Below are positions 2,593-42,492 of a stretch of DNA of 64,000 nt, one piece after another. This stretch comes from Linum tenue (Eukaryota; Streptophyta; Magnoliopsida; Malpighiales; Linaceae), in NCBI GenBank assembly GCA_946122785.1, contig CAMGYJ010000006.1, forward strand, positions 54,208,066 through 54,272,065, given 5' to 3'. The notes under the pieces were generated by a model that saw nothing but the letters and a program-made list of their open reading frames with translations, did not search any database and was not told the DNA's origin. Both the position numbers and the translations under genes were made by a program. Position 1 is the first letter of the stretch. Each line of letters starts with the position of its first letter.

Positions 2593-2646
2593 TGTACGTT
2601 GTGTTTGGTGGATGTACTATGCGCTGTGGGGTGTTCATGTGGTGTT

Positions 2647-21403: not shown

Positions 21404-21408
21404 GTACA
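21404..21408. repeat. Target site duplication of element A, left
   Basis: GTACA, matching 42488-42492. Confidence 0.85.
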
Positions 21409-22250
21409 TGATAGACCGTTAATTACACATGTTTTACCCCTATTCTTACACCGTTTGAGATGTGGTTTCTCGTGTTTTAGGCCGATTTCACGCTAGGTTG
21501 TGCATGTTTGTGATATTTCAGGTCCTAGTACGTGAATGGAGGCTTGGGAGCGAGTTTGGGGGCGATTGGACGAAGATCGGACGCGTGGCGAGGTGCTGAG
21601 GAAGCCACACGGGCATTCCTGGAACCCACACGGCCGTGCAAGTCATGCTCGTGGCCGTGTGATTTGTGCCGAGAGCAAACACGGGCAGGGTGGAATTTCC
21701 ACACGGCCGTGTGACCCTGGCCGTGTGGGAAGCCTGAAGCTCGATTAATTGAGACGCAGCGTTTTGGAAGCCACACGGGCAACTGGGTAAGCCACACGGC
21801 CGTGTGGCCTGCCCGTGTGAGTCGGGAAATCTGGGTTTTTACCCAATTCCGAGCCACAAGTGAGAGAATCGATTTTCTGGAGCAAAAACAGAGTTTTAGA
21901 GAGAGAAAGAGCGAAGAACAAACCCTATGAGCTATTTGGAGTGGATTTCTCACCATTGAAGCCTAGATTGCGTCCCCAGGAGTGAAGATTGACATCCCAG
22001 AGCAGATTTTCCTCATCTTTATGAGTATGACTACTCTGATTTCTATTTTCTTCTCTCTCTATGGAGTAGAACCATTCTCTCACTTGGGTATGAAGAACCC
22101 TAGTTCCATGTGTTAGGGATTTGATTGTAATGACTTGGGATAATTATACAGTTTGGTTTTAATCGAATGATGCATGATTCATTGAATTGATTGAAGTCCG
22201 ATCAACTTTTCTTGATTTCTGCTGCAACCTGAGATAGATAGAATCTGATT
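21409..22250 (+). repeat. Element A 5' LTR (truncated)
   Basis: Matches the first ~840 bp of the 3' LTR at 41134 and stops after TAGAATCTGATTA, where the 3' LTR goes on with GGTTGTTAGAGC. It contains the CACACGGCCGTGTG palindromes at about 21612-21820. Confidence 0.9.
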
Positions 22251-22262
22251 ATTCGTAGAAGA

Positions 22263-23604
22263 GATCGACGACTCCTTCCCGGGTGAGCGATTGCTGGCGA
22301 TGACACTGGTGGACAGCGTGGCCCCTTGGTATTCTGACTTTGCCAATTATCTGGTGGGCAAGCAGTTACCCAAGGGGATGGCTACTCATGCAAAGCGCAA
22401 GTTCTTCTCCGATCTGAAGCATTACTTCTGGGAGGATCCTTACCTCTTCAGAATCGGAGCAGACGGTGTGATCCGGCGCTGTGTCATGGAGCACGAGATG
22501 GGAGACATCCTGTCTCAATGCCACGAGGGACCTACTGGAGGTCACCATGGAGGAAACCGCACGGCACGGAAGGTGCTACAGTGGGGCTTCTATTGGCCCT
22601 CGCTCTTCAAGGATGCAGACACCTTCGCACGACAGTGCGACCGCTGCCAACGGTCAAGTAACATTTCTTCCCGGGATGAGATGCCCCAACATATCTCTAT
22701 TATTTGTGAAATTTTTGATGTTTGGGGTATCGATTTCATGGGCCCATTCCCTCCATCTTTTGGCAATCTGTACATATTGGTTGCAGTGGACTACGTCTCG
22801 AGGTGGGCAGAAGCTCAAGCCATGCCCATCAATGATGCAAGACGGGTCTGCTCATTTCTGAAGCAGCTGTTCTCCCGGTTTGGGACACCTCGCTCCATCA
22901 TTAGTGATAGAGGAACCCATTTTCAAGGGCAATTCACTAAACTCCTCTCTCGCTATGGCGTTAAGCATCAGGTGTCGGTGGCCTACCATCCCCAGTCAAA
23001 TGGGCAGGCCGAGCTGACGAACCGGGAGCTAAAACGAATAATTGAAAAGACGATGGATCAGTCCCGCAAGGATTGGTCCACCAAGCTCGATGATGCTCTT
23101 TGGGCGTATAGGACGGCCTATTAAAATCCGATTGGCACTTCTCCCTATAGGCTTGTCTATGGGAAGGCGTGCCATTTGCCGGTAGAGCTAGAGCACAAGG
23201 CCTTCTGGGTCATTAAGCTGCTAAACCTGGATTTGAGTGTTGCATGTACAGAACGTAAGTTGCAGTTGCTGGAGTTGGAGGAGTGGCGTTACCACGCCTA
23301 CGAGAACACCCTGCTCTACAAGGAGCGCACCAAGCGTCTCCACGACGCTCGGTTGAGGGGCCCGAAAGAGTTTCAGGTAGGTGATCATGTTCTACTCTTC
23401 AATGAACGCCTGAAACTCTTCCCGGGCAAGCTCTGTTCGAGGTGGTCGGGACCCTTCACGGTCACCCAAGTTTTCCCGCACGGTGCGGTGGAGATCAGCA
23501 ATGCTCAAACCGAGCCATTCAAGGTGAATGGCCACCTCCTAAAGCTGTATTTGGGAGGTGCTGTCGAGCGCGCAGAGCTGCTGATCAAGCTCGAGGACCC
23601 TTAG
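22263..23604 (+). pseudogene. Element A integrase remnant
   Basis: Collinear with the integrase half of B's polyprotein. HHCC zinc finger ([11 protein letters not shown] ... CDRCQR), catalytic-core motifs ([32 protein letters not shown]) and the C-terminal domain ([19 protein letters not shown]) are all present. The frame runs from the deletion junction to the normal pol stop but is broken by one TAA at 23122-23124, where B has AAG. Without gag, RT and RNase H, and with no start of its own, it cannot be a working integrase gene. Confidence 0.92.
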
Positions 23605-23779
23605 TTCCTCTACTGGCGTCCAGCTAAAAGACGGTAAAGAAGCGCTTGTGGGGAGGCAACCCCACCGAGGTTTGCATTTTCTTACCTTTGTCCTTTTGAT
23701 TTTTGTGTTTTTTTTGAGTCTTGAGGTGTTGTTCCAGAGTCGAATGTCATTTTTGAGTGAAAACAGGTTGAATTCGGGG

Positions 23780-24130
23780 CTCCAGCAGTCCACACGGCCA
23801 TGCCTGAAACTCACACGGCAGTGTGGTTTTGAGCCCTTGGCAGTGTGAAGGCTCGGCATAATCCACACGCCAAATGTGCATTTCACACGACCGTGTGGAT
23901 TACCTCGGCCAGGCCGTGTGACCGACACGGGAAACTCTGATTCTCACACGGCCGTGTGGTTTTGAGCCCTTGGCCGTGTGAGCTCTCGGCATTTTCCACA
24001 CGGCCAGATGTGCATGTCACACGGCCGTGTCGGCCAACACGGGCACACCCCGCACCTCACACGGCCATGTGAACCTGTCCGTGTGGCTCAGCCACGGGCT
24101 ATAAATTCGGTCGACACGGCCGAGTGGTCA
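23780..24130 (+). repeat. Element A pol-ORF2 spacer array of CACACGGCCGTGTG palindromes
   Basis: Repeated CACACGGCC, GGCCGTGTG and full palindromes with CACGGCCGTG core (for example near 23945 and 24018), spaced by 10-30 bp. Position and spacing mirror B's array at 32950-33385 but with outer bases CA...TG instead of TG...CA. Confidence 0.9.
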
Positions 24131-24928
24131 GAAAATTCAAAATCACTCGCCGGAATCCTCCCCCCCTCGCCGGAAAACCGCGACTTTTCACCCTCCTTGG
24201 CGAATTTCGGCCATTTTTGGTCGGTTTTTCACAAATCCAACACCACACCCACCCTTCCCTCACCATTATCGGCCTATCCCTCGTTTTTTAGGTGATTTGG
24301 GTCGATTTTGAGTCACCGGAGGCGATTTCCGGCAAGGCTCCGATGAGCACTTCCGGGCACTTTTTCGGCTTTTCGTCGCTTCCATCGGCTTCCCCTCATC
24401 ATCCCCAACACCTCTACTTGAGTCTCCAGGTTTGATTTTGCCCTTAACTATGTTAATTAGGGAGAATTGGGTGTTAGGGTGCATGTTTAGAGAACCTCTT
24501 TGAATCTTGTGAATTTTGTGCAATTGATTGAGGGGAATGCTTGGATTATGTCTGAGTTGTGTTGGGCAATGTCCCCCTTGCTAATTTGAGCCCTTGTGTG
24601 CAAGAATTTTGCCAATTTCATGCTTAACTTAATAGTGCACACAAGGTGTTCGATGAAATGCCTGTTTTCCATGCCATGTTGTGGGCACCGGTTGGGGCCC
24701 TTAATGATGTGATTTGAGGGTGTATTTGCTATGGATGTGAACCTTAAGTTGCCTAATTTATCGTGAATGTGCATCCCCACTCAGATTATGCTTGATTGAT
24801 CGAGTTTTTCACCCCCGAACTATGGATGAAACCATGGTTAGGCTGTTTTCTGTTCTTAAGTGTGGGGGTGTGATTGACCTTTTCTTTGGCTCTTTTGGTT
24901 CCACTTTGGGTTGTTCTTTTGCAGGATC

Positions 24929-25731
24929 ATGACGAAACCCGACCCCAAGCACCCGTTCATTCGGGATTTGAAGCGGGGCCCCTACCAGGATCGGTTCAAG
25001 CAGGTCCTAGCCTGCTCGTTTGGGCAGCACCACTGCTGGTCCAGGCGAGAGTTTGAGCAGTTGCACTGCTATGAGCACTTCGCCGCCATCGTCACCAACC
25101 GCCCGTGGCGCCGTTTGCTCTACATCCGCGAGAAGGTCTACCACGAGCCCGTGCTGGAGTTCTACACGACCTTCAAGCACGCATCCACGGAGAGCTGGAC
25201 AGACAGTAACGCCGTCAAGTTCCGGCTCGGCGGTGTACGTGTACCACGGCCTATGAGCTACCACGAGCTGGCCGCTGCTCTCGAGCTCGGCCTGGCCGAT
25301 AGTGAGGAATTCGTCACCGAGGTCAACGATCCGGTGGGTGTGAACTTCAGGACGCAGTACACCCGCCTCGCTCAGCCAGGCCAGCAGCGTCCCTTCACTG
25401 CAGGGAAGACGAAGGCTAGCACCCTGCAGCTCGACAACCGCATCCTCCACCACCTGCTGGCAAAGTCCTACACCCCAGCTTCGGACAGCGCCAGCGCCAT
25501 CACCAAGCGGGCCCTGTACTTCATACAGTCTATCCACCAGGCCGACCATCCTCTCCACTTGGGTTCTGTGGTGGCCAGAACCTTTGAGAAGAGTGCTTCC
25601 GAGTTGAAGAGCCTGCACTGCACTCCCCTCATCACACGCCTGGTCACCTACTTCGGGTTTTCACTGCAGGGGTGCACAGTGTAGGGGAGCACTAGTGTCT
25701 TCGGCAGAGAGACGATTAGTCGCATGCACCT
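24929..25731 (+). pseudogene. Element A ORF2, 5' part (env-position protein)
   Basis: Homologous to B ORF2 from MTKPDPKHPFIRDLKRG onward, with the shared motifs EFYTTFKH, SYHELA, ASTL, LLHHLL.KSYTP, DHPLHLGSVVARTF and LKSLHC.PLITRLVT. A stop (TAG at 25682-25684, where B has GAG) interrupts it, and B is inserted 50 bp further on, in frame with the rest at 38730. The start follows a splice-acceptor-like TTTTGCAG at 24917-24924. Confidence 0.88.
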
Positions 25732-25736
25732 GCTGC
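25732..25736. repeat. Target site duplication of element B, left
   Basis: GCTGC, matching 38730-38734. Confidence 0.85.
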
Positions 25737-27077
25737 TGATAGACCGTCATTTACACATGTTTTTACCCTCATACTAACACCGTTTGAGGTGTTGATTCTC
25801 GTGTTTTAGGCCGATTTCACGCTAGGTTGTGCTTGGTTGTGTTATTTCAGGTCCTAGTACGGGAATGAAGGCTTAGGAGCGAGTCTGGGGTCGATTGGAT
25901 GAAGAACGGACGAAGGGCAAGCTTTTGGAGGAGTGCACGGCCAGACCAGGGGGCTGCACGGCCGTGCACTAGTGCCATTTGGCCGTGCGCCTCATGACGA
26001 GAGCTTGCACGGGCACAATCCAGGCTTGCACGGCCGTGCGCCTGGCCGTGCAAGAAGGCTGAGCTTAATAAACAAAACGGTGCGTTTGATGTTGCACGGC
26101 CAGATTGGGGTGGTGCACGGCCGTGCACCTGCCCGTGCACCTGGGGAAATCCGGTTTTAGTGCCTAATCCGAGCCAAAAGTGAGAGAATCGTTTTTTCAG
26201 AGCAAAAACAGAGCCCTAAAGAGAGAAAGTGCGAAGAACTCATCCTAGAAGCTATCTTGGAGCTGGATTTCATCGAATCGAGCCTGGAGATCGCCATAGG
26301 AGTGAACATCATCGTCCCGGAGCAGATTATCCTCATCGTTATGAGTATGACTAATCCGATTCTTGTTTTCTCTTCTCTCTCTATGGAGTAGAACCCTTCT
26401 CTCACTTGGGTATGAAGAACCCTAGTTCCTGATGTTAGGGTTTTGATTGTAATGACTTGGGAGTGATATTATTGTTTGATTTTAATCGAATGACGCATGT
26501 TTCATGAATTGATTTGAGTCTGATCAGCTTGTTTCAATTTCTGCTTCAACCTGAGATAGATAGAATCTGATTAGGTTGTTAGAGCCTCTTCATTCGATAG
26601 TAGGAGATTGGCTATACGAGAGTTAGCCAGTTTACTGCTTTGTACTGGTGTTCTTGGCGCCAGTAGTGGAGTTCTGTGTTCATAGCCTCAGCTTTCTATC
26701 CCGGTGAAGACTAGTCGTCTGCCGGGTAGTTAGACTGAGAGGGCTTGGTCAGCTTAAGAGATTCCAAGCTACTGTCGGATCTTCCGCAGTCTAATCAACA
26801 GTAAATCAACCCAGGGAATTACAATTGAACCTAACTAAGGGGCTAGGGGGACTCAATCCCGAGTGACTCTTAACTGCTTTTGAAAACCGAACCATTTCCT
26901 GCTTTCTTACTGCTTTTGCTTAAACAACAATCATTCGAACTAAGTTGCTAGATAATAGAGAATCACGGAGTAAGCAGTAGATCTAGACCTCGGGTTGATA
27001 ATTAAACTTGCCTGTTACTGCATTCCCGGACTGCGATTGCACTTGGTCGCAGTTTGGTGTTGTGTTTTGGCGTGTCA
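25737..27077 (+). repeat. Element B 5' LTR, 1,341 bp
   Basis: TGATAGACCGTCATTTACAC ... TTTTGGCGTGTCA. It carries TGCACGGCCGTGCA palindromes and half-sites at 25935-26145. Differences from the 3' LTR that I found are near 25861, 25995, 26219 and 26989. Confidence 0.95.
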
Positions 27078-27083
27078 AGTTTT

Positions 27084-27101
27084 TGGCGCCGTTACCGGGG
27101 A
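27084..27101 (+). promoter_or_regulatory. Element B primer binding site
   Basis: TGGCGCCGTTACCGGGGA, six bases after the LTR end. It matches the 3' end of tRNA-Asp (complement) with one mismatch, the usual primer of Athila elements. Confidence 0.8.
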
Positions 27102-27213
27102 CCCCTCTAGGTTATTGGGGAAACGTGATAATTTGTTACTCTAGCTTTTATTTTCCGTATTTTATCTCTTCCACCTGTGTGCCTTCACGGGTTGCTTCTA
27201 CTGATTGTGTGCA

Positions 27214-27219
27214 GGTAGT
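27214..27219 (+). promoter_or_regulatory. Candidate splice donor just before gag
   Basis: GTGCAG|GTAGTG with the cut after 27214, seven bases before the gag ATG at 27222. Joined to the acceptor at 34197 it would remove gag-pol exactly and make ORF2 the first ORF. The pairing is inferred. Confidence 0.35.
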
Positions 27220-27221
27220 GC

Positions 27222-30200
27222 ATGACCCGTAGCCAGTCGGGAGATCTACTACCATTAGACCAGGAGCTTGAACGAACTTGTAGGAACTTCAAGCGGGCTC
27301 TAAAGGCGCGACTGGCTGCGGAGGAGGCGCTGTCACAGCTGCAGTTAGAAGAAGAAGAAGAAGAAGAAGGCGAGATGGGGGATCCTCAGAACCACAATCT
27401 GATCCCCGAGGAGCAGACCATGGGATCCTACTGGACCGCAAGGGCTGCGGACATGAGGTCACCTATTCAACACCCTCAGGTCCCAGCCAACAACTTTGAG
27501 GTGAGCACCTCCGTGATCACCATGCTGCGCGGTTCAGTAGTGTTCCGTGGTAAGGAGGGAGAGTGCCCTCGATCACACCTCAGGCGATTCCACGAGCTCA
27601 TCGATGGAATCAAGATCAACGGGGTCCCAGCAGATGCCATCCAGCTGCGGTACTTCCCTTTCACTCTTGAGGGGCAGGCCAAGGAGTGGCTAGACACTCG
27701 ACCTCCGGGCTCCATCACCACGTTCGCCAACCTGGCGGACAAGTTCCTCACCCGCTACCATCCTCCATCCAAGACAGCTGATCTCCAGAAGCAGATTACA
27801 CACTTTTCTCAGGATGAGGATGAGACCATTAGGGATGCTTGGGAGAGGTACACCAGCCTCTTTCTCAGGTGTCCCAACCATGGTTTCAATGATGCGTTTA
27901 AGGTGGGCACCTTCTATCACGCCCTCTTCCCGGAGGACAAGCAGCTGATCGATTCGGTTTGTGGCGGGAACATGCTGACCAAAACCCCGCCACAGCTGAA
28001 TCAACTCTTTGAGGAGATGGCGGAGAATGGTTATGACTGGGGCACTGCCAGGAGATCGAGACGAGCACCTGGAAGGGGCGTGCATGCTGTGGGCACCCAG
28101 TCATCTGATCTGGTGCAGGTGGTATCGAAGCTGGTTTCAGCTATCGATCGTTCTGGTTTGATTGCAGGTACCGGACAGCCGCAGGCGATGCACTGCCAGT
28201 GGTGTGAGAGCTCTCATCACACCGTGGAGGACTGTCAGGCTATGAGGGAGTCGTCCACTCCCCAGGAGCAGGTGGATTTCATCGGGAATGCCAGGCGCTT
28301 TGACCCCTACAGCAACACCTATAATGAGGGGTGGCGCCAGCATCCTAATTTTTCTTGGGCTGGGCCAAATCCCAGACCACCAGCTCCCCAGGGACCTCCC
28401 GGTTTCCAGAGGCCTCCATTCCAGCCCAGACAGGGGCAATTTCAGCAGCAACAGCAGCCACTCTACCAGCCCAGACAGGGGCCAGTTCCACCTCAGTCGC
28501 AGGCACGACCATTTCCACAGGCTGAGGCAGCCCCAGCACAGGTTGACCCGATGGCGGAGCTGAGAGATCTGGTGGGTTCTTTGGCCTCCTCCAGTGCGAG
28601 TAAGTTCACTAACATTGAGCAGTTCATGGAGAAAGCTTCTGGCAAGTTCTTGGAGCTAGAAGCTGGTCAGAGAAACACACAGGCTGTGCTGCGAGATATA
28701 CAGACCCAGCTTGGTGGTGTTGCACAGGCTGTTGCTCGGAGGACTCCAGGTACCTTGCCTGGTCAGACTATTCCTCACCCGCAGAACCAGGATGAAAACT
28801 GCAGTGCCATCACAACCAGGAGTGGCAAGGTGACTGCAGATCCACCTGTTCGAGCAGAGGAGAAAGAGACCCCTGCTTCAGCACTTCCAGCTAATCAGGA
28901 AGAAATGGAGAAGGAGGTTGAGGTGCCTGCTCCTACACCGCAACCAGTGGTGAAGGAGTATGTACCCCAGCTTCCCTTTCCTACTCGGTTGCACAAAGAC
29001 CGACTGGAGACTGAGTTTGCCAAATTCATGGCAATGCTGAAGCAGGTGAATATTAGCATGCCCTTCGTGGAGGCATTATCGAAGATGCCCAAGTATGCCA
29101 AGTTCATGAAGGATCTCCTCACCAATAAGAGGAAGCTTGGGGAGCTGTCTACGGTGATGCTGAACGAGGAGTGTTCTGCCATCCTGCAGAACAAACTACC
29201 AGAGAAGCGAAAAGATCCAGGGAGTTTCACTATCCCTTGCATGATTGGTAGTTTGCATGTAGGGAAGTCCTTGGCGGATTTAGGCGCTAGCATTAATGTC
29301 ATGCCTTATTCATTGTTTAAGAAGCTAGGCCTAGGTGAACCCAGTAATACTAGGATGAGCATCCAGCTCGCTGATAGATCTATTGTGCATCCTAGGGGTA
29401 TAGCAGAGGACTTGATAGTCGCAGTAGGGCCATTTTCATATCCTGTTGATTTTGTGATTTTGGACATAAATGAGGATGTTGATGTGCCATTGATACTGGG
29501 TAGACCTTTTCTCGCCACCGCCAAGGCACTGATTGATGTTAATGATGGGAAGCTGATTTTGAGAGCTGGGGGTGAACAAATCACCTTCTCTGTTTCTGAT
29601 AATATGAAACACCCCCAGCTCCATGATGATCTTGATTACTGTGATGTTGTTGCTGATTTTGAGACCGCACTCGCCATCACGAGTGCGGGTACTGATGATT
29701 TCCTTGAGCGTTGTCTTTTGCTAGGGGAACAGGCATCACAGGATGTGCAGCTGGCGGAGCAGCTGGCGGAGCTGGACGAGGCTGCGAGCGAGGGGCGAGA
29801 GATGCCATTCCAGCCGATTCCCGTCTCGCCCCGGCTCGCTACATCATTGGAGGAGCCACCAGAGTTGGAGCTTAAACCCCTCCCATCTCATCTGGAGTAT
29901 GCATTTCTCCGGGAGGGGAATAAGCTCCCGGTTATTATTAGCTCGGATCTGACCCCCGAGCAGAAGAGCAAGCTGGTGGCTCTGTTGCAGAAGTATGCCC
30001 GGGCCATGGCATGGAAGATCACTGACATCAGAGGCATTAGCCCATCCTTCTGCTCTCACAGAATCTTAATGGAGGATGAGGTTAAGCCAGTCAGACAGCC
30101 GCAGAGGAGATTGTCTCCTAACTTGGAGGCAGTGGTCCGGGCAGAGATCGTGAAGCTCATGGATGCAGGGATCATTTTTGCTATATCTGATAGCAAGTGG

Positions 30201-32765
30201 GTCAGCCCCACTCAGGTGGTCCCGAAGAAAGGCGGGATGACTGTGGTCCCGAACGAGAAGAAGGAGTTGATCCCGATGCGGACCGTGACCGGCTGGAGAG
30301 TCTGCATCGATTACCGGCGCCTGAACGACGCCACCAGGAAAGATCATTTTCCCCTACCTTTCATTGACCAGATGCTGGAGAGGTTGGCGGGCCATGAGTT
30401 CTACTGCTTCCTGGATGGCATGTCTGGGTACTTCCAGATTCCGATTGCACCGGAGGATCAGGAGAAGACCACATTCACTTGCCCCTTCGGCACTTTTGCT
30501 TACCGGCGGATTCCATTTGGGCTGTGTAACGCACCGGCGACCTTCCAGAGATGCATGCTGGCTATCTTTGACCGACTGGTTGGAGAGATCATGGAAGTCT
30601 TCATGGATGATTTCTCGGTATATGGAGACTCCTTCACTCATTGTCTCCATAACCTGGAACTCGTTCTGAAGAGGTGCGAGGAGACGAATCTGGCACTCAG
30701 CTGGGAGAAGTGCCATTTCATGGTTCGTGAGGGTATCGTGCTTGGGCACAAGATCTCCAAGAAGGGGATTGAGGTAGATCGCGCGAAGATTGAGACGATC
30801 AGTCAGCTACCTCCTCCCGTTTCTGTGAAGGGGATTCGCAGCTTTCTGGGTCATGCAGGCTTTTACCGGCGCTTCATCAAAGACTTCTCGAAGATTGCCC
30901 TGCCGTTGACCAAGCTGTTGGAGAAGGATGCGCCATTCCAGTTCACTCCAGAGTGCACAGCCGCATTTGAGACTCTGAAGGAGAAGCTTACCCATGCCCC
31001 TATCATGGTGACTCCTGACTGGTCTCTTCCTTTTGAGCTGATGTGCGATGCGAGTGATTATGCAGTCGGAGCAGTTCTGGGTCAGAGACGCGAGAAACAC
31101 TTCCAGCCCATCTACTACGCGTCGAAGACCTTGAACGACGCACAGGAGAACTACACCACCACAGAGAAGGAGCTCCTCGCTGTGGTGTATGCATTTGACA
31201 AGTTCCGACCCTATCTGGTGCTCTCTCATGTGGTGGTTTACACTGACCACTCGGCGATTCGTTATCTGATGAGCAAGGCTGATGCCAAGCCTAGGCTCAT
31301 CCGCTGGATCTTGCTGCTGCAGGAGTTCGATATCGAGATCCGGGACAAGAAGGGAGCCGAGAATGTTGCTGCTGATCATCTTTCACGGTTGGAAGCCCCT
31401 CCGGTGGACAACTTCGAGGAAGAGATCGACGACTCCTTCCCGGGTGAGCGATTGCTGGCGATGACCCTGGTGGACAGCGTTACCCCTTGGTATTCTGACT
31501 TTGCCAATTATTTGGTGGGCAAGCAGTTACCCAAGGGGATGGCTACTCATGCGAAGCGCAAGTTCTTCTCCGATCTGAAGCACTACTTCTGGGAGGATCC
31601 TTACCTCTTCAGAATCGGAGCAGATGGCGTGATCCGGCGCTGTGTCATGGAGCATGAGATGGGAGATATCCTGTCTCACTGTCACGAAGGACCCACTGGC
31701 GGTCATCATGGAGGAACCCGCACGGCGCGGAAGGTGTTACAGTCGGGCTTCTATTGGCCCTCGCTCTTCAAGGATGCAGACACCTTCGCACGCCAGTGCG
31801 ACCGCTGCCAAAGGTCAGGTAACATTTCTGCCCGGGATGAGATGCCCCAACATATATCTGTTATTTGTGAAATTTTTGATGTTTGGGGTATCGATTTCAT
31901 GGGCCCATTCCCTCCATCTTTTGGCAATCTGTACATTTTGGTTGCAGTGGACTACGTCTCGAGGTGGGCAGAAGCTCAAGCCATGCCCACCAATGACGCA
32001 AGACGGGTCTGCTCATTTCTGAAGCAGCTGTTCTCCCGGTTCGGGACACCTCGCGCCATTATTAGTGATAGAGGAACCCATTTTCAGGGGCAATTCACTA
32101 AACTCCTCTCTCGCTATGGCGTTAAGCATCAGGTGTCGGTGGCCTATCACCCCCAGTCAAATGGGCAGGCCGAGCTGACGAACCGGGAGTTAAAACGCAT
32201 AATTGAAAAGACGGTGGATCAGTCCCGCAAGGATTGGTCCACCAAGCTCGATGATGCTCTCTGGGCGTATAGGACTGCCTATAAGAACCCGATTGGCACT
32301 TCTCCCTATAGGCTTGTCTATGGGAAGGCGTGCCATTTGCCAGTAGAGCTAGAGCACAAGGCCTTCTGGGCCATTAAGCTGCTAAACATGGATTTGAGTG
32401 TTGCAGGTACAGAACGTAAGTTGCAGCTGCTGGAGTTGGAGGAGTGGCGTTACCACGCCTACGAGAACACCCTGCTCTACAAAGAGCGCACCAAGCGTCT
32501 TCACGACGCTAGGTTGAGGGGCCCGAAGGAGTTTCAGGTAGGTGATCGTGTTCTGCTCTTTAATGCACGCCTGAAACTCTTTCCGGGCAAGCTCCGTTCT
32601 AGGTGGCCGGGTCCTTTCACGGTGACCCAAGTTTTCCCGCATGGTGCGGTGGAGATCAGCAATGCTCAAACCGAGCCATTCAAGGTGAATGGCCACCTCC
32701 TAAAGTTGTACTTGGGAGGTGCTGTCGAGCGCGCAGAGCTGCTGATCAAGCTCGAGGACCCTTAG
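27222..32765 (+). CDS. Element B gag-pol polyprotein, 1,847 residues
   Basis: One uninterrupted frame. Gag: retrotrans_gag-type core at about residues 140-260 ([25 protein letters not shown]), then a Pro/Gln-rich tract, and before it a CCHC knuckle [14 protein letters not shown] at about 325-338. Protease: [10 protein letters not shown] at about 685, with D-L-G as the active triad. Reverse transcriptase: [22 protein letters not shown] and the catalytic FMDD box at residues 1127-1130. RNase [33 protein letters not shown] at about 1265-1385. Integrase: HHCC finger at about 1485-1530 and D1558, D1616, E1651, with 34 residues between the last two by my count. C-terminal integrase domain follows to the end. 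All catalytic residues are present, so it should encode a working replication set. Gag and pol are fused in one frame without a visible frameshift or stop. Confidence 0.95.
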
Positions 32766-32945
32766 TTCCTCTACTGGCGTCCAGCTAAAAGACGGTAAAG
32801 AAGCGCTTGTGGGGAGGCAACCCCACCGAGGTTTGCATTTTCTTACTCTTTTTCCTTTGATTTTGTGTGTTTTTGAGTCTTGAGACGTTGATCTGGATTT
32901 CCGTGTCGTGTTTGAGTGAAAACAGGTTGATTTCGGGACCCCAGC

Positions 32946-33390
32946 AAGGTGCACGGCCAGAAAATCAGCTTGCACGGCCGTGCACATCCTCGGCCATGCC
33001 GTGCGCGCTCTCGCACCAAGTTGCACGGCCAAAAGTGCATTGTGCACGGCCGTGCACATCCTCGGCCAGGCCGTGCGCGCTCTCGCACCAAGTTGCACGG
33101 CCAAAAGTGCATTGTGCACGGCCGTGCACATCCTCGGCCAGGCCGTGCGCGCTCTCGCACCAAGTTGCACGGCCAAAAGTGCATTGTGCACGGCCGTGCA
33201 CATCCTCGGCCAGGCCGTGCGCGCTCTCGCACCAAGTTGCACGGCCAAATGTGCTATGTGCACGGCCGTGCAACTCACTCGGCCAGGCCGTGTCGGCCTG
33301 CACGGGCAAAATGTCAAGGTGCACGGCCGTGCGCCTCTGCCCGTGCAGCCGAGCACGGGCTCTATAAATGGCCGTGCACGGCCATTTGGG
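32946..33390 (+). repeat. Element B pol-ORF2 spacer: 72-bp tandem repeat of TGCACGGCCGTGCA palindromes
   Basis: TTGCACGGCCAAA begins at 33021, 33093, 33165 and 33237, an exact 72-bp period, with a partial copy before and diverged copies after. Each unit holds one full palindrome, one half-site TGCACGGCC and one GGCCGTGCG. The period is a multiple of three and lacks stops, which makes several long but spurious frames here. Confidence 0.93.
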
Positions 33391-34190
33391 TCAGAAACCC
33401 ACTTTTTCTCGCCGGAATCCTCTCCCCCTCGCCGGAAAACCGCGCCAAACATACCTATTTTGATTTTTCCGGCCACTTTGGGTCCGTTTTTCACCAAACC
33501 AACACAAAACCCATTCTTTCCACACCCAAGGCGGCCTATCCCCCGAGTTTGAGCGCGTTTGGGCGACATTTTTGTCGCCGGAGGCGATTTCCGGCGAGAA
33601 TCCGGCGAGGCTCCGACGAGCATTTCCGGGCAGATTTTCGGCATTTCGTCGCTTCCATCGCCTTCCCCTCATCTTCCCCTACACCTCTACTTGAGTCTCC
33701 AGGTTTGATTTTGCCCCTAACTTTGTTAATTTTGGAGAATTGAGTGTGTAGGGTGTTTGTTAGAGAATTTTTGTGAATCATGCGATTTGTGTGAAATTGA
33801 TTGAGGGGAATGCATGGGATGTGATTGAATTATGTTGGGCAATGTCCCGTTTGTTTGATTGAGCCCTTGTGTGCAAGAATTTGGCCAATTTCATGCTTCA
33901 CTTAATAGTGCACACAAGGTGTTCGATGAAATGCCTGTTTTCCATGCCATGTTGTGGCCACCGGTTGGGGCCCTTATTGATGTCGTTTGTGGGTGTTTTT
34001 GCTATGACTGTGAACCTTGAGTTGCCTACTTGATTGTGATTGTGCACCCCCACCCGGTTTATGCTTGATTTATCGAGTTTTTGACCCCCGAACTATGGAT
34101 GAAACCATGGTTCGGCTGCTTCCTGTTCTTCAGTGTGGGGGTGGACTTGACCGTTTCTTTGGCTCTTTTGGTTCCACTTTGGGTTGTTGT
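33391..34190 (+). other. Element B spacer between palindrome array and ORF2
   Basis: Noncoding: Cys/Gly-rich 'CGCCGGA' sequence at 33410-33640, then AT-rich sequence, then AGTGTGGGGGTGG (34132) and a pyrimidine-rich run to the acceptor. Element A has the same order at 24130-24920. Confidence 0.6.
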
Positions 34191-34197
34191 TTTGCAG
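34180..34197 (+). promoter_or_regulatory. Conserved splice-acceptor-like site before ORF2
   Basis: GGGTTGTTGTTTTGCAG ends at 34197, and the ORF2 ATG follows after four bases. Element A has GGGTTGTTCTTTTGCAG ending at 24924 and also four bases before its ATG. Confidence 0.5.
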
Positions 34198-34201
34198 GGC
34201 A

Positions 34202-35533
34202 ATGACACAACCTAATTTCCAGCACCCGTTCATCCGGGATCTCAGGAGGGGTTCCACCGCAGCGCGCTTCAAGCAAGTCGTGGAAACCCCGTTTGGCGCC
34301 CACCATTGCTTCTCCAAACGGGAGTTTCGGCAATTGCACTGCTACGACCAGATTTCCGCCGTGCTCGCCAACCCTGCATGGCGCCGTCTGCTCCAGATCT
34401 GCGAGACGTGCTACAACGAGCCGGTGTGGGAGTTCTACACCACGTTCAAGCACAACTCCACGACCAGGTGCCATGATAGTACAGCCGTTCAATTCAGGCT
34501 GGGTGGGGTCCCCCGATCCTTGAGCTATCACGAGCTGGCTGAGGCTCTCGACCTCGGCCTCGTCGATGATCGGGACTACGTCGCCGAGCTTAAGGAGCCG
34601 GAGGTGGACTTTAAGAGGCTGTACACCAGCCTGGCTCAGCCTGGCCAGACGCTTCCGTTCAAGTCTGGGAGGACGAAGGCATCGACCCTGCGGATCGAGT
34701 ACCGACTTCTCCACCACCTGCTGGGGAAGTCTTACACTCCTACATATGATAGCTCCGGCCACATCACGAAGAGGCCCCTGTACTTCCTCGATTCGATCCG
34801 CGAGCGCGACCACCCCCTCCACCTGGGTTCGGTGGTGGCCAGGACATTTGCGAAGACGGCCAAGGAGCTGAAGAGCCTCCACTGCGGCCCCCTCATCACC
34901 CGCCTGGTCACCTTCTTCGGCCTCTCACTGCAGGGGTGCACCAAGGAGGGGGAGACCCAAATCTTTGGCGCGGCGACGATCGGGAAGATGCTGTTGTTGC
35001 GGGACAGGAACGGTGTTCAGTGGGTCGAGGGATTTCCGGAGCCCGAGGAACCCGAGGAGGAGGCTGACGATGCGGTGGACATCGATGAGGTGGATGCTGC
35101 TGTGGATGCTGCTGCGGCTGCTGCTGATGATCCCCCACCGACTGACTTCCATTTTGGGGGTGGCAGCTCCACTTTCCAGGGCCAGGACTACTTCACCCAG
35201 CAGTTCGAGCAGCTGCGGATACAGAACCAGCTGCTCCTCGACCAGCAGGTGCAGTTCCAGCAGCAGTACGCGGCAGATCAGGCCGAGTACCGGCACAGGC
35301 TGGACACGATCCAGGCTCAGCAGGGCGTGACTCTCGCCCATATCGAGCGGGAGAAGCGCCGTTCCCGGCGCATGCAGGAGGTTCAGCAGCACCTGCTTCA
35401 GCTGGTTCCGGGCGAGCCACCTGTATGGAGGACTCCCTGGGACGACTCCCCTCCACATGACGGCGCGGCTGGCGCTGCTGGTGATGATGCATTCATGGAT
35501 GACATCGACTTCACCGATCTTGGCGACGAGTAG
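34202..35533 (+). CDS. Element B ORF2, env-position protein of Athila type, 443 residues
   Basis: Intact ORF between pol and the 3' LTR. Residues 1-245 form a conserved globular region (HPFIRDLRRG, WEFYTTFKHN, SYHELAEALDLG, LLHHLLGKSYTP, HPLHLGSVVARTF, LKSLHCGPLITRLVTFFGL). This resembles the plant-specific putative transposon proteins of Athila elements (ATHILA ORF family), by memory only. Residues about 275-325 are acidic and Ala-rich, 335-400 are a Gln-rich coiled coil with a basic REKRRSRR patch, and the C terminus is acidic. I see no signal peptide or membrane segment, so an envelope role is not supported; a nuclear or nucleic-acid-binding role is equally possible. The start is the first ATG after an acceptor-like site. 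Confidence 0.85.
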   Translation: MTQPNFQHPFIRDLRRGSTAARFKQVVETPFGAHHCFSKREFRQLHCYDQISAVLANPAWRRLLQICETCYNEPVWEFYTTFKHNSTTRCHDSTAVQFRLGGVPRSLSYHELAEALDLGLVDDRDYVAELKEPEVDFKRLYTSLAQPGQTLPFKSGRTKASTLRIEYRLLHHLLGKSYTPTYDSSGHITKRPLYFLDSIRERDHPLHLGSVVARTFAKTAKELKSLHCGPLITRLVTFFGLSLQGCTKEGETQIFGAATIGKMLLLRDRNGVQWVEGFPEPEEPEEEADDAVDIDEVDAAVDAAAAAADDPPPTDFHFGGGSSTFQGQDYFTQQFEQLRIQNQLLLDQQVQFQQQYAADQAEYRHRLDTIQAQQGVTLAHIEREKRRSRRMQEVQQHLLQLVPGEPPVWRTPWDDSPPHDGAAGAAGDDAFMDDIDFTDLGDE

Positions 35534-37371
35534 GCTGTACTCGTTGCCCGTCTCAGTGTGTTTGTTTTTGTTTTTTTTTCAGACTTTTGAGTGTTTGCTC
35601 CCTGTGTGCGGAGCTTGGACTTAGTGTCGGGTGTTTTTTGTTTTTGGTTTTTCATTTGTGGTTTGATGTAGCCGTCTGGGCTAACACTTATCCCTAACAC
35701 CAGTGTGCTAGTGTTCTGATGTTCGATTTGTGCAGTATTGACCACTTCCCCGTTCGCTTCTCGCTGACTGGTCCACTTCCAGTCCCCCAGCAGTGTTCTT
35801 ACCCGGTAACATCGTTCCCCTTATCTTTCCCTCTACTCCATTGAGGGCAATGTCGTGCTTAAGTGTGGGGGGATGTTTTGTATCGGTTGGATATTTTAGA
35901 TGGTGCTTGGAGCCTAGTCCACTGTCCGAATCTTACGATTTGAGGGCTCCAAGTACTGCTGTTTGATCATATTGGCACTGTGTTTTGATGGATGAATTGA
36001 TTGGTTTTCGGATTAATGCATGACAACTTGTTTGCGACTAGGACAACCTATGATGAGGACTGAAATGTGCAGTAGAACGATGTAGGGGTTCAGTTTTTCA
36101 ACTGTTTGCTTGCCAACTGTGACTTGATCTGATTACTTGTTCTTGACAGTCGTTTATGCATCTAGTTCAGGGTATCAGAATGTGAGATAGAGCATATAGG
36201 TAGCCATGTGAGATTTGAGCCTGCTCGTTTCTTTCTTGTGTGATAGATCCCTCTTCCATGATGTGTAGCATTCACGTTGTCACTAGCTAAGATGATGGGG
36301 GCATAGGATTAGCCCACGCCCAAAACTGACTGTCCTGATGTGTCATATCCCCTAGTCAGCCCCTTTGAGCCGTGTGTTATCCTTTCTTTTGGTCTATAAT
36401 GAGAAAATCACCCTTGTTGCATCTTTTAGAAGGTTCCACAGAGTGGTTTATATATATTCTGCTGTTTCTGCTAAAGTCTATATGAGTGTTGGAGGTAGTG
36501 CTTAAATGTTGGGCATGTGTTTGAAATGTGCAGAAGTGGTGGCTCTCTTAAGAAATGAAAAGAAAAATAAAAGAAAAAAAACAAAGAAAAAGTGAAAGCA
36601 AAAGAGAGCCACTACCAAAAATCTGAATAATGCCCAGTAAGTAGTGTTTCTTAGCAGTCTGGCTTGGAAATGCTGATGTTTATGCCTCCTTCGCTCTTGT
36701 GCTCTTAAGATATTGAGTAATGCAGGATAGCAGAAAGAAAATACCGGGTTGTTGACTGTGGTTGTGTGTTTGGAAAATGTGGAACCTTTTGCTATGAATA
36801 CTTCCACCACCTAAAAGGCCTTTTCCCCATGTCCAAGACCCTAGCCAGTCATTTGAACCTGTGTCTAAGACCTCCTGATTAGTTAGTGGTGACACCCCAT
36901 ATGTGAACTCTAGCATTTAGAGGCTGCCATCATGGTGAAGAGATGATAGGATTGAGAGAAATAGCATGCGCATCTTTCGCATCAAATTGTCCTGACCCCA
37001 CTGGTCGAGAGTGAGTGATTCATTTTCATTTTCTATATGCTCTTGTACCCCGGTGAGGACCTAGATTGCTCGGTCTCTATTCTGATGTTTTGAGTTGGAT
37101 GCATGAGTTGACTGTTTTGAGTAAGTGGTTGAATCAAGTCTAGGTTGGCCAGTGAACAGAAGGGAGACTCTTCCTTTACTCGATTTGCTGCACTCGAATG
37201 TCCTTTGTGGTGGTTGTCCAGGTTGTTGTTGAGGTTGTGCATGTGTTGATGTTTGAAAACCAGTGCGATTCACGTGTTCTGTGCCTTTATGACTTGTCCC
37301 CAATGTTGGTTGATTGAAATATGTAAGCTTACCTAGTGTCTGACTTGGTTTGCTTGGGGACAAGCAAACGG
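35534..37371 (+). other. Element B 3' noncoding region
   Basis: About 1.8 kb with no credible ORF. It holds a second polypurine-like AAGTGTGGGGGGAT at 35861 and the hairpin at 37293-37364. It is collinear with A at 39293-41118 and well conserved, which suggests a role in the RNA. Confidence 0.6.
37293..37364 (+). repeat. Inverted repeat just before the polypurine tract (element B)
   Basis: CTTGTCCCCAA at 37293-37303 can pair with TTGGGGACAAG at 37354-37364 (11 bp, about 50-nt loop). The same pair occurs in A at 41038-41049 and 41098-41109. Confidence 0.75.
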
Positions 37372-37373
37372 TT

Positions 37374-37388
37374 AAGTGTGGGGGAGTT
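37374..37388 (+). promoter_or_regulatory. Polypurine tract of element B
   Basis: AAGTGTGGGGGAGTT directly abuts the 3' LTR TG at 37389. It primes plus-strand DNA synthesis. Confidence 0.85.
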
Positions 37389-38729
37389 TGATAGACCGTC
37401 ATTTACACATGTTTTTACCCTCATACTAACACCGTTTGAGGTGTTGATTCTCGTGTTTTAGGCCGATTTCACGCTAGGTTGTGCTTGGTTGTGTTATTTC
37501 AGGTCCTAGTACGTGAATGAAGGCTTAGGAGCGAGTCTGGGGTCGATTGGATGAAGAACGGACGAAGGGCAAGCTTTTGGAGGAGTGCACGGCCAGACCA
37601 GGGGGCTGCACGGCCGTGCACTAGTGCCATTTGGCCGTGCGCCTCACGACGAGAGCTTGCACGGGCACAATCCAGGCTTGCACGGCCGTGCGCCTGGCCG
37701 TGCAAGAAGGCTGAGCTTAATAAACAAAACGGTGCGTTTGATGTTGCACGGCCAGATTGGGGTGGTGCACGGCCGTGCACCTGCCCGTGCACCTGGGGAA
37801 ATCCGGTTTTAGTGCCTAATCCGAGCCAAAAGTGAGAGAATCGTTTTTTCAGAGCAAAAACAGAGCCCTAGAGAGAGAAAGTGCGAAGAACTCATCCTAG
37901 AAGCTATCTTGGAGCTGGATTTCATCGAATCGAGCCTGGAGATCGCCATAGGAGTGAACATCATCGTCCCGGAGCAGATTATCCTCATCGTTATGAGTAT
38001 GACTAATCCGATTCTTGTTTTCTCTTCTCTCTCTATGGAGTAGAACCCTTCTCTCACTTGGGTATGAAGAACCCTAGTTCCTGATGTTAGGGTTTTGATT
38101 GTAATGACTTGGGAGTGATATTATTGTTTGATTTTAATCGAATGACGCATGTTTCATGAATTGATTTGAGTCTGATCAGCTTGTTTCAATTTCTGCTTCA
38201 ACCTGAGATAGATAGAATCTGATTAGGTTGTTAGAGCCTCTTCATTCGATAGTAGGAGATTGGCTATACGAGAGTTAGCCAGTTTACTGCTTTGTACTGG
38301 TGTTCTTGGCGCCAGTAGTGGAGTTCTGTGTTCATAGCCTCAGCTTTCTATCCCGGTGAAGACTAGTCGTCTGCCGGGTAGTTAGACTGAGAGGGCTTGG
38401 TCAGCTTAAGAGATTCCAAGCTACTGTCGGATCTTCCGCAGTCTAATCAACAGTAAATCAACCCAGGGAATTACAATTGAACCTAACTAAGGGGCTAGGG
38501 GGACTCAATCCCGAGTGACTCTTAACTGCTTTTGAAAACCGAACCATTTCCTGCTTTCTTACTGCTTTTGCTTAAACAACAATCATTCGAACTAAGTTGC
38601 TAGATAATAGAGAATCACGGAGTAAGCAGTAGATCTAGACCCCGGGTTGATAATTAAACTTGCCTGTTACTGCATTCCCGGACTGCGATTGCACTTGGTC
38701 GCAGTTTGGTGTTGTGTTTTGGCGTGTCA
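37389..38729 (+). repeat. Element B 3' LTR, 1,341 bp
   Basis: Same length and near-identical sequence to 25737-27077, beginning directly after the polypurine tract and ending GCGTGTCA. Confidence 0.95.
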
Positions 38730-38734: not shown

Positions 38735-39292
38735 GTGAGAACCGCGACATCCTGTGGATCGAGGGGTTTCCGGAACCTCAGATCCCAGAGGAGGACCAGC
38801 CAGCGGACGAGGAGGATGAGGCTGCTAATCATGTGGAGCCCGAGGAGGTGGATGATGCTGCTGCCCCCCGCCCCACCACCTTCGAGTACGAGGGTGGCAG
38901 CTCCGCTTTCCCCGGGCAAGACTACTTCACCCACTAGTTCGAGCAGCTGCGTATCCAGAACCAGCAGATCCTTGACCAGCAGCTCCAGTTCCAGCAGCAG
39001 TATGCGCCTCACCAGGCCGAGTACCAGCATAGGATGGCTGCTTATGATGAGCGCCTGGACATGATGGCAACCCAGCAGGGGGTGACACTGGCTCATATCG
39101 AGCGAGAGAAGGCTCGATCTAGGCGCATGCAGGAGGTCCAGCAGCACCTGCTCCAGCTGCTCCCGGGCGAGCAACCAATCTGGAGGACTCCCTGAGAGGA
39201 CTCTCCATTTTCACCTCCCCCAGCTGATGGTGATGATGGTGATGACGCTTTCATGGACGACATCGACCTAGATAACCTTGGCGACGAGTAGG
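38730..39292 (+). pseudogene. Element A ORF2, 3' part
   Basis: Continues A's ORF2 after B. It reads LRENRDILWIEGFPEP, an acidic stretch, then FEYEGGSSAFPGQDYFTH before a TAG at 38935 (B has CAG). A Gln-rich coiled-coil region and HIEREKARSRRMQEVQQHLL follow. A TGA at 39193 interrupts it again, and it ends DNLGDE at 39292. The stops fit decay after loss of function. Confidence 0.85.
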
Positions 39293-41133: not shown

Positions 41134-42487
41134 TGATAGACCGTTAATTACACATGTTTTTACCCCTATTCTTACACCGTTTGAGATGTGGTTTCTCGTG
41201 TTTTAGGCCGATTTCACGCTAGGTTGTGCTTGTTTGTGATATTTCAGGTCCTAGTACGTGAATGGAGGCTTGGGAGCGAGTTTGGGGGCGATTGGACGAA
41301 GATCGGACGCGTGGCGAGGTGCTGAGGAAGCCACACGGGCATTCCTGGAACCCACACGGCCGTGCAAGTCATGCTCGTGGCCGTGTGGTTTGTGCCGAGA
41401 GCAAACACGGGCAGGGTGGAATTTCCACACGGCCGTGTGACCCTGGCTGTGTGGGAAGCCTGAAGCTCGATTAGTTGAGACGCAGCGTTTTGGAAGCCAC
41501 ACGGGCAACTGGGTAAGCCACACGGCCGTGTGGCCTGCCCATGTGAGTCGGGAAATCTGGGTTTTTACCCAATTCCGAGCCACAAGTGAGAGAATCGATT
41601 TTCTGGAGCAAAAACAGAGTTTTAGAGAGAGAAAGAGCGAAGAACAAACCCTAGGAGCTATTTGGAGTGGATTTCTCACCATTGAAGCCCAGATTGCGTC
41701 CCCGGGAGTGAAGATTGACATCCCAGAGCAGATTTTCCTCATCTTTATGAGTATGACTACTCTGATTTCTGTTTTCCTCTCTCTCTCTCTCTATGGAGTA
41801 GAACCTTTCTCTCACTTGGGTATGAAGAACCCTAGTTCCATGTGTTAGGGATTTGATTGTAATGACTTGGGATGATTATACTGTTTGGTTTTAATCGAAT
41901 GATGCATGATTCATTGAATTGATTGAAGTCTGATAAACTTTTCTTGATTTCTGCTGCAACCTGAGATAGATAGAATCTGATTAGGTTGTTAGAGCTACAT
42001 CATTCGGTAGTAGGAGATTGGCTATACGTGAGTTAGTCAGTTTACTGCTTTGTACTGGAATCCAATTCCAGTAGTGGAGTTCTGTGTTCATAGCCTCAGC
42101 TTTCTATCCCGGTGAAGACTAGCCGTCTGCCGGATAGTTAGACTGAGAGGGCTTGGTCAGCTTAAGAGATTCCAAGCTACTGTCGGATCTTCCGCAGTTT
42201 AATTAACAGTAAATCAACCCAGGGTAATTACAATTAAACCTAACTAAGGAGCTAGGGGGACTCATTCCCGAGTGACTCTTCCTTGACTCCAGAAAACCGA
42301 ACCATTTCCTGCTTTTTACTGCTTTTACTTTGAACAACAATCACTGGACTTAGTTTGCTAGATAATAGATAATCACGGAGTAGGCAGTAGATCTAGACCC
42401 CGGGTTGATAATAGAACTTGCCTGTTATTGCATTTCCGGGCTACGATTACACTTGGTCGCAGTTTGGTGTTGTGTTTTGGCGTGTCA
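41134..42487 (+). repeat. Element A 3' LTR, 1,354 bp
   Basis: Starts TGATAGACCGTTAATTACAC directly after the polypurine tract and ends TTGGCGTGTCA. It carries the same palindrome array as the 5' LTR (about 41328-41540). Confidence 0.9.
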
Positions 42488-42492
42488 GTACA
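42488..42492. repeat. Target site duplication of element A, right
   Basis: GTACA, matching 21404-21408. Confidence 0.85.

What the first reader, a model, noticed from the sequence alone, without database searches (positions are those of the whole stretch)
21600..33390. Two related retrotransposons carry the same palindrome array with a family-specific, concerted change in the outer bases
Elements A and B both have clusters of palindromes with core CACGGCCGTG, in the LTR and in the pol-ORF2 spacer. In A the full palindrome is CACACGGCCGTGTG at both sites (LTR 21612-21820 and 41328-41540; spacer 23780-24130). In B it is TGCACGGCCGTGCA at both sites (LTR 25935-26145 and 37585-37795; spacer 32946-33385). 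The flanking dinucleotide has changed on both arms and at two sites more than 5 kb apart, while surrounding sequence stays alignable. That looks like co-evolution with something recognising the site: a self-encoded dimeric DNA- or RNA-binding protein (ORF2 is a candidate), or loop-loop RNA dimerisation or packaging. I know of no described function for it. Gene conversion spreading a variant is an alternative.
Basis: partly seen in the sequence, partly recalled or inferred. Interest (0 to 1): 0.88.

Follow-up and report, generated by a model that had tools for sequence, protein, structure and literature searches.

The report
Matched palindrome arrays in plant retrotransposons
Two related jumping genes in a flax-genus plant carry the same clusters of short mirror-image DNA words in two places each, and those clusters and the element's own extra protein differ far more between the two than the sequence around them does, which suggests that the protein may recognise the words and switch its own element on.

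Summary
Both Athila-type elements carry arrays of a 9-bp half-site, two outer bases plus CACGGSC, singly and as palindromes, in the LTR and again between pol and ORF2. Outer bases are CA in A (18 of 24) and TG in B (30 of 38; CA 0 of 38). In the LTR array cores agree between A and B at 70 of 72 positions, outer bases at 4 of 24, linkers at 69 of 130. New points: (1) the spacer array is an inverted relative of the LTR array, with no sign of LTR-spacer exchange since A and B split; (2) the only TATAWAW in each spacer lies near the array's end, upstream of ORF2; none is in the LTRs; (3) on a backbone 5-16% diverged, ORF2 (Ks 0.64-0.90) and both arrays (0.55-0.60) are islands of deep divergence. 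Best reading, unproven: protein-binding sites of the LTR promoter and of an internal ORF2 promoter, recognised by ORF2. Sireviruses (Ty1/copia) are reported to carry CGG-CCG palindromes in the LTR and 5' of env, so this is a variant in another superfamily. Only two elements were compared; genome search was unreachable.

The parts
21409..22251 (+). Element A 5' LTR, truncated; joined directly to integrase
   Evidence: 97.4% to 41134-41983; target duplication GTACA at 21404-21408 and 42488-42492 read
21606..21819 (.). A 5' LTR palindrome array: 12 exact half-site cores, outer bases CA at 10 of 12
22252..23604 (+). A integrase region (one in-frame stop); 95.0% nt and 95.8% aa identical to B, Ks 0.167
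23791..24121 (.). A spacer palindrome array (inverted relative of the LTR array), partly decayed
24100..24106 (+). TATAAAT near the end of the A spacer array (one more half-site follows), candidate internal promoter
   Evidence: only TATAWAW in the 1,324-bp spacer, both strands
24321..24928 (+). A ORF2 leader / presumed intron; acceptor-like GCAGG at 24921, donor-like AGGT at 24428 (one of three AGGT there); backbone-like divergence (0.155)
24929..25684 (+). A ORF2 N-terminal part (ends in a stop), weak match to PF20167
25737..27077 (+). Element B 5' LTR, 1,341 bp, 4 mismatches to the 3' LTR; target duplication GCTGC
25934..26139 (.). B 5' LTR palindrome array: 12 half-sites, TG at 10 and CG at 2
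27219..32765 (+). B gag-pol open frame: Retrotrans_gag, Asp_protease_2, RVT_1, RT_RNaseH, integrase (rve)
   Evidence: scanned in four pieces
32950..33383 (.). B spacer palindrome array with 72-bp tandem units: 26 half-sites, TG at 20, CG at 4
33363..33369 (+). TATAAAT near the end of the B spacer array (two overlapping half-sites follow), homologous place to A
   Evidence: only TATAWAW in the 1,436-bp spacer, both strands
34202..35533 (+). B ORF2, 443 aa plus stop (P0002 starts one codon upstream): PF20167-like domain, predicted long helix, basic stretch, acidic C-terminus, no TM-like segment
37389..38729 (+). B 3' LTR
37586..37791 (.). B 3' LTR palindrome array
38735..39291 (+). A ORF2 C-terminal part (two in-frame stops before its end), Ks 0.90 to B
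41134..42487 (+). A 3' LTR
41332..41545 (.). A 3' LTR palindrome array; two half-site cores differ from the 5' copy by CG to TG or CA

Best explanation
The arrays are clustered DNA binding sites for a dimeric or multimeric protein, in the LTR promoter region and in an internal TATA promoter that drives ORF2. The recogniser is most likely ORF2 itself, acting in the nucleus as an activator or anti-silencer of its own element. The two lineages carry different matched sets (LTR array, ORF2-promoter array, ORF2). Recombination between families has kept the backbone alike, while mismatched sets were selected against. Shown: the arrays, family-specific half-sites, conserved cores with diverged linkers, inverted LTR-spacer relationship, the TATA near the array end, and the divergence islands. 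Inferred: promoter activity, DNA binding, nuclear role, and selection against mismatches.
For: LTR array A versus B: cores 70/72, outer 4/24, linkers 69/130. LTR and spacer arrays are related in inverted orientation (p <1/300, 0.017, 0.003, <1/300 in the four LTR-spacer comparisons with 5' LTRs; forward 0.63, 0.19, 0.38, 0.12), with no excess within-element similarity. Half-site to palindrome spacing 21-22 bp in regular units, about two helical turns, while linker sequence varies. TATAAAT only near the array end in both spacers. Divergence: integrase Ks 0.167, leader 0.155, 3' UTR 0.095, LTR remainder 0.117, against spacer array 0.60, ORF2 Ks 0.64 (N) and 0.90 (C), LTR array 0.55; 4-fold sites differ at 18/195 (integrase) and 60/128 (ORF2), by transversion 9/195 and 37/128, so CpG decay alone is not the cause. 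No TM-like segment in 15 of 15 ORF2 proteins of 300 aa or more (max KD19 1.40; usual threshold about 1.6, recalled); 7 of these 15 reach a C-terminal DAFM[DN]DI acidic motif, the other 8 end without it. A sunflower Athila ORF with the same Pfam match has a predicted NLS (PMC11728184, passages).
Against: n = 2 elements. No DNA-binding fold found: both AlphaFold models are poor (mean pLDDT 41.7 and 36.5), the PF20167 match is below its cut-off in 6 of 6 proteins scanned, no PDB sequence relative at E up to 5. An acceptor-like site precedes the ORF2 ATG, so ORF2 could come from a spliced LTR transcript; a review states that env-like genes use the 5' LTR promoter (PMC7264820, passages). The LTRs lack a TATAWAW. 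In Arabidopsis Athila, LTR and env come apart: of four recombination events, family VI explicitly has LTRs of VII and env of IVc, and two further families took a foreign env (PMC2410132 section 7). Six env-containing Sireviruses lack the boxes (PMC2829016, passage), so an env-like gene does not require them.
Confidence: 0.4

Rival explanations
1. Host-factor array: the half-sites bind a host transcription factor (or paralogues), and the two families use different ones. ORF2 divergence is unrelated family divergence.
For: Sirevirus boxes of the same type matched mainly stress-related plant cis-elements in a database comparison (PMC2829016 section 9). No DNA-binding domain shown for ORF2.
Against: Does not explain why ORF2, lying between leader and 3' UTR of backbone-like divergence, shares the deep divergence of the arrays.
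Confidence: 0.25
2. Neutral mosaic plus homogenisation: A and B are products of template switching between old families; arrays stay uniform through slippage and conversion between units, without co-adaptation.
For: Athila families recombine often, with LTR and env separable (PMC2410132). B's spacer has 72-bp tandem copies with identical linkers. LTR units 1 and 3 share a core variant within each element (CACGGGC in A, CACGGCC in B) and align at 85-86% over 36-41 bp (5' LTR unit 3 against 3' LTR unit 1). An array type inherited with each old family would also give agreement.
Against: LTR and spacer share outer bases without sharing linkers more than across elements. Unit 1-unit 3 linkers (0.42 in A, 0.58 in B) are hardly more alike than the same unit between elements (0.50, 0.42), so conversion between LTR units is not demonstrated. 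The leader is less diverged than its neighbours (85/608 against ORF2-N 194/740, p 3e-8; against post-array 61/195, p 2e-7).
Confidence: 0.25
3. RNA function: palindromes act as hairpins or loop-loop contacts in the element RNA (dimerisation, packaging, long-range LTR-spacer pairing), or as a source of host siRNA.
For: Changes are compensatory in both arms, as expected of stems too. 6 of 6 CG variants in B (5' LTR + spacer) lie in the 3' arm, where U-G pairing would survive (few independent events). The predicted LTR-spacer duplex is more stable than with shuffled LTR linkers (A -254.7 against mean -215.1, sd 8.0; B -271.3 against -254.9, sd 8.9). Maize Sirevirus palindromes attract small RNAs (PMC10760457, passages).
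Against: Each array alone folds no better than linker-shuffled versions (z -1.5, -1.0, 0.1, 0.3; 60 shuffles each). The duplex result follows from the inverted homology by itself. 21-22 bp phasing fits duplex DNA. No Rfam match at gathering threshold in 21000-42600.
Confidence: 0.1

Closest known systems
Sirevirus repeated motif (RM) boxes (Ty1/copia), PMC2829016
   Same: Palindromic boxes with CGG-CCG core, many copies in the LTR and more 5' of the env-like gene, one consensus per element; regulatory role and an internal env promoter were proposed there (section 9 and passages)
   Different: Other superfamily (here gypsy gene order); no LTR TATA found here; here half-sites in phased units, inverted LTR-spacer relationship, a TATA near the spacer array end, and ORF2-array divergence islands (whether Sireviruses have the last three was not checked)
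VANC / VANDAL anti-silencing system of Arabidopsis, PMC5735166
   Same: Short motif arrays in non-coding parts, differing between families, evolving with a self-encoded protein that binds them (passages)
   Different: DNA transposon; motifs arrayed in one orientation, tandem-repeat driven; binding and loss of methylation shown there, nothing shown here; homology of ORF2 to VANC not tested
Foamy virus Tas with LTR promoter and internal promoter, PMC4929722
   Same: A self-encoded protein that binds both the LTR promoter and an internal promoter (abstract)
   Different: Animal retrovirus; no sequence relation tested; function here inferred only
Grande gene23 (maize Ty3/gypsy)
   Same: Accessory gene between pol and 3' LTR encoding a nuclear protein from its own promoter (title and passages in PMC11963269 and PMC7264820; original not read)
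   Different: Antisense gene; different protein

Membership tests
Athila (Ty3/gypsy) | gag, protease, RT, RNase H, integrase in gypsy order | tested here: met
   four pieces of the B frame
Athila (Ty3/gypsy) | env-like ORF downstream of pol, PF20167-type | tested here: inconclusive
   E 9e-9 but 35.9 bits, below the 45-bit cut-off; 6 of 6 proteins scanned are below it
Athila (Ty3/gypsy) | placement in an RT tree | not tested
   no reference Athila RT set was fetched
Sirevirus RM system | CGG-CCG palindromes clustered in the LTR | tested here: met
Sirevirus RM system | further boxes 5' of the env-like gene | tested here: met
Sirevirus RM system | TATA shortly after the boxes in the LTR | tested here: not met
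   no TATAWAW in four LTR copies, one of them truncated
Sirevirus RM system | Ty1/copia Sirevirus backbone | tested here: not met
   gypsy order, integrase last
VANC-like anti-silencing | encoded protein binds the motif and removes silencing marks | not testable with these tools
   needs binding and methylation assays
Tas-like transactivator with internal promoter | internal promoter upstream of the gene | tested here: inconclusive
   conserved TATAAAT near the array end; no transcript data

The most novel reading that the evidence does not exclude
The 'envelope-like' ORF2 of Athila is not an envelope but a self-encoded, sequence-specific nuclear regulator. Its specificity and its two target arrays (LTR promoter and its own internal promoter) form one co-adapted self-recognition set, kept together while families exchange the rest of the genome: a plant counterpart of foamy virus Tas, and possibly the common reason for the palindromic boxes of Sireviruses.
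Probability: 0.33. Interest if true: 0.82.

Novelty: new variant of a known kind. Interest (0 to 1): 0.62.

Why it matters
The role of env-like genes in plant retroelements is called unproven or unclear in PMC2829016 and PMC7264820 (passages). Matched arrays and ORF2, with the sequence between them recombining, would give a concrete and cheaply testable function (regulation rather than infection), and would explain how closely related families in one nucleus keep their activation separate.

Tried and rejected
Viral contigs: 17 and 40 stretches with the A and B palindromes, and an ORF2 search with 2 pattern matches, 0 confirmed. The 57 loci were scanned for half-site density; the highest was 6 per 250 bp. 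Only parts of L053 (top of that list) and L015 (two palindromes) were read; they look bacterial to me and show no such array. Literature: motif letters, 76 papers, 30 listed, none on plant retroelements by title, 46 not seen. Searches for Athila palindromes or an internal env promoter: 24 papers, 20 listed; 131, 15 listed; 13, 13 listed; 15, 12 listed; by title and start of abstract the close matches were the Sirevirus paper and its database paper. Wright and Voytas 2002 and Bousios 2016 are not held. Structure: two AlphaFold jobs were too poor to search with, so no fold search was run. LTR-to-spacer conversion of longer tracts rejected as main cause. CpG decay rejected as the sole cause of the islands by transversions. 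A weak HLH hit in ORF2 (E 0.11) was not relied on.

Limits of the statistics: half-sites are not independent. Array alignments are uncertain; ORF2 and post-array stretches, which are also islands, align better. Reverse scores may be raised by the near-symmetry of the units: A LTR against B LTR in reverse also reached p 0.043. The unit search allowed only 11-13 nt linkers (12 of 13 units found had 12), so spacing rests on the distances. The TATA chance (0.009, 0.004) is for windows chosen around the site. The segmentation did not split the leader from its neighbours; that split rests on the Fisher tests.

Full report
What is there. The window holds two nested LTR retrotransposons. B (25737-38729) is young: its LTRs are 1,341 bp with 4 mismatches, the target duplication is GCTGC, gag-pol is one open frame with gag, protease, RT, RNase H and integrase matches, and ORF2 is open. 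A (21409-42487, target duplication GTACA) is older and broken: its 5' LTR runs straight into integrase, integrase and ORF2 carry stops, and B sits about 50 bp after the stop that ends A's first ORF2 part. At the rate quoted in PMC2410132 (1.5e-8), B is roughly 0.1 My old (my arithmetic). The host is probably a Linum: every ORF2 relative listed is from Linum trigynum (15 of 15; 23 of 23; 15 of 15), the best at 85% identity.

The arrays. The unit is a 9-bp half-site, two outer bases plus CACGGSC, in both orientations, single or fused as a palindrome. There are 84 exact cores in 1,766 bp of arrays and 11 in the other 62 kb. A has CA outside at 18 of 24, B TG at 30 of 38 (one LTR per element plus spacer). 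In the aligned 5' LTR arrays the cores agree at 70 of 72 positions and the outer bases at 4 of 24, while linkers agree at 69 of 130. The core is therefore held, and the outer pair replaced, in sequence that has otherwise drifted. CA and TG are the two products of CpG transition from CG, and CG is present at 6 of 38 B half-sites, so a CG intermediate is plausible (inference). Half-site to palindrome distance is 21-22 bp in the regular units, about two turns of DNA.

The two arrays of one element are inverted relatives. After setting every half-site to one spelling, so that linkers and layout count, LTR and spacer align in reverse orientation better than in 300 linker-shuffled controls: p <1/300 (A LTR-A spacer; the same with A's 3' LTR), 0.017 (B-B), 0.003 (A LTR-B spacer), <1/300 (B LTR-A spacer). 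Forward gives 0.63, 0.19, 0.38, 0.12. A caution: the units are nearly symmetric, and A LTR against B LTR in reverse also reached 0.043. A test without normalising gave the same direction (reverse 0 of 500 and p 0.004; forward 0.13, 0.19), as did BLAST (23944-24033 against 41440-41351). The within-element scores (75, 74) do not exceed the cross-element ones (74, 82). So the duplication appears older than the A/B split, and there is no sign of LTR-spacer exchange since. Conversion between LTR units is not clear: units 1 and 3 share a core variant within each element, but their linkers (0.42, 0.58) are hardly more alike than the same unit between elements (0.50, 0.42). B's spacer did grow by tandem copying (identical linkers in three units).

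Promoter signs. TATAAAT occurs once in each pol-to-ORF2 spacer, near the end of the array (24100, 33363), and TATAWAW is absent from the four LTR copies, both strands. Chance in the 101 bp around it is 0.009 and 0.004, for windows chosen after seeing it. ORF2 begins 829 and 839 bp further on, just after an acceptor-like TTTTGCAG|G; a donor-like AG|GTTTGAT is shared at 24428 and 33701 (one of three and two AGGT). This fits an internal promoter with a leader intron, or equally a spliced LTR transcript.

Divergence islands. Backbone between A and B: integrase 95% identical (Ks 0.167), pol stop to array K2P 0.158, leader/intron 0.155, 3' UTR over 1.8 kb 0.095, LTR start 0.156, LTR remainder 0.117. 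Islands: spacer array 0.60 and the 195 bp after it 0.41; ORF2 Ks 0.64 and 0.90; LTR array 0.55 and the 172 bp after it 0.36. gag to RT could not be compared, because A lacks it. Segmentation of the 3' half places changes at 39276 (ORF2 stop at 39291), 41310 and 41720; of the 5' half only at 23685 under the penalty used, the leader being separated from its neighbours, in segments that I set by eye from the sliding profile, by Fisher tests (3e-8 and 2e-7). Fourfold sites differ at 18/195 in integrase and 60/128 in ORF2 (p 2e-14), by transversion 9/195 and 37/128 (p 2e-9). Protein-level selection does not raise synonymous divergence, and transversions exclude CpG decay as sole cause, so these islands most simply have older ancestry: A and B are mosaics. 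In the ORF2 tree B groups with L. trigynum P0003, P0004 and P0006 to the exclusion of A (support 100/100), while A and P0011 sit in an unresolved fork beside them; the A/B split of ORF2 is thus older than the split of B's ORF2 from its nearest L. trigynum relative. Athila families are known to recombine (PMC2410132). That the old parts are ORF2 and both arrays, separated by younger leader and 3' UTR, is the strongest hint that they belong together. It rests on one pair of elements.

ORF2. It matches PF20167 below cut-off. It has no TM-like stretch, a long helix at 329-402 in an otherwise poor model, a basic stretch EREKRRSRR, and an acidic end DDAFMDDIDF, whose like is present in 7 of 15 proteins of 300 aa or more, B's own included, the other 8 ending without it. 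In the second clade (27-38% identical, rows P0025-P0034) 2 of 10 rows show a related end. Resemblance of that end to acidic activation domains is recalled, not tested. The sunflower Athila ORF with the same Pfam match has a predicted nuclear signal (PMC11728184, passages). Two relatives bear the UniRef name 'aminotransferase-like plant mobile domain'; [quoted passage not shown] These are leads only.

Against known systems. The nearest is the Sirevirus RM: palindromes with CGG-CCG core in the LTR, and, in nine env-bearing elements, further copies mostly before the gene (77 of 79 linker copies), each element with its own consensus; the four RM elements without env have none there (PMC2829016, section 9). 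Six env-bearing Sireviruses lack the boxes (passage). Its authors call the motif Sirevirus-specific against 'classic' elements and support, without identifying it, an internal env promoter. The present case is the same arrangement in a gypsy-type element and adds the TATA, the inverted relationship and the ORF2 coupling. VANC/VANDAL shows that motif arrays and a self-encoded binder can evolve together; foamy virus Tas shows one self-encoded protein acting on LTR and internal promoter.

Verdict. The most likely mechanism is DNA recognition at two promoters, with ORF2 as leading but unproven recogniser (0.4). Results against: Arabidopsis recombinants in which LTR and env come apart (one explicit, two by a foreign env, of four), the splice alternative, the LTR-spacer RNA duplex that cannot be excluded, poor structural evidence, and n = 2.

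Noticed in passing
21722, 21815 and 25995 (with 3' LTR partners): Differences between LTR pairs include CG to TG or CA changes, two of them inside A's half-sites: methylation-type decay of the arrays.
   Followed up: partly
25934-26128 and 21606-21806: Units 1 and 3 of the LTR array share the core variant (CACGGGC in A, CACGGCC in B), a possible but unproven sign of homogenisation within the array.
   Followed up: partly
about 42545: Right flank of element A holds TTGGTATCAGAGTC, which looks like a Ty1/copia primer-binding site (recalled motif), so A may have landed at the edge of a copia-type element.
   Followed up: no
16109-17185, minus strand: Presenilin gene part (PF01080, E 1e-93).
   Followed up: no
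2008-2616, minus strand: Frame with xylanase inhibitor N-terminal (aspartic-protease-like) match (PF14543).
   Followed up: no
P0025-P0034 (Linum trigynum proteins): A second clade of ORF2-like proteins, 27-38% identical to B's, several with an arginine-rich patch (RPRRR); its arrays would be worth typing.
   Followed up: partly
L015 267-399: Unrelated viral-collection contig with two perfect CACACGGCCGTGTG 119 bp apart, in what look to me like bacterial repeats.
   Followed up: no
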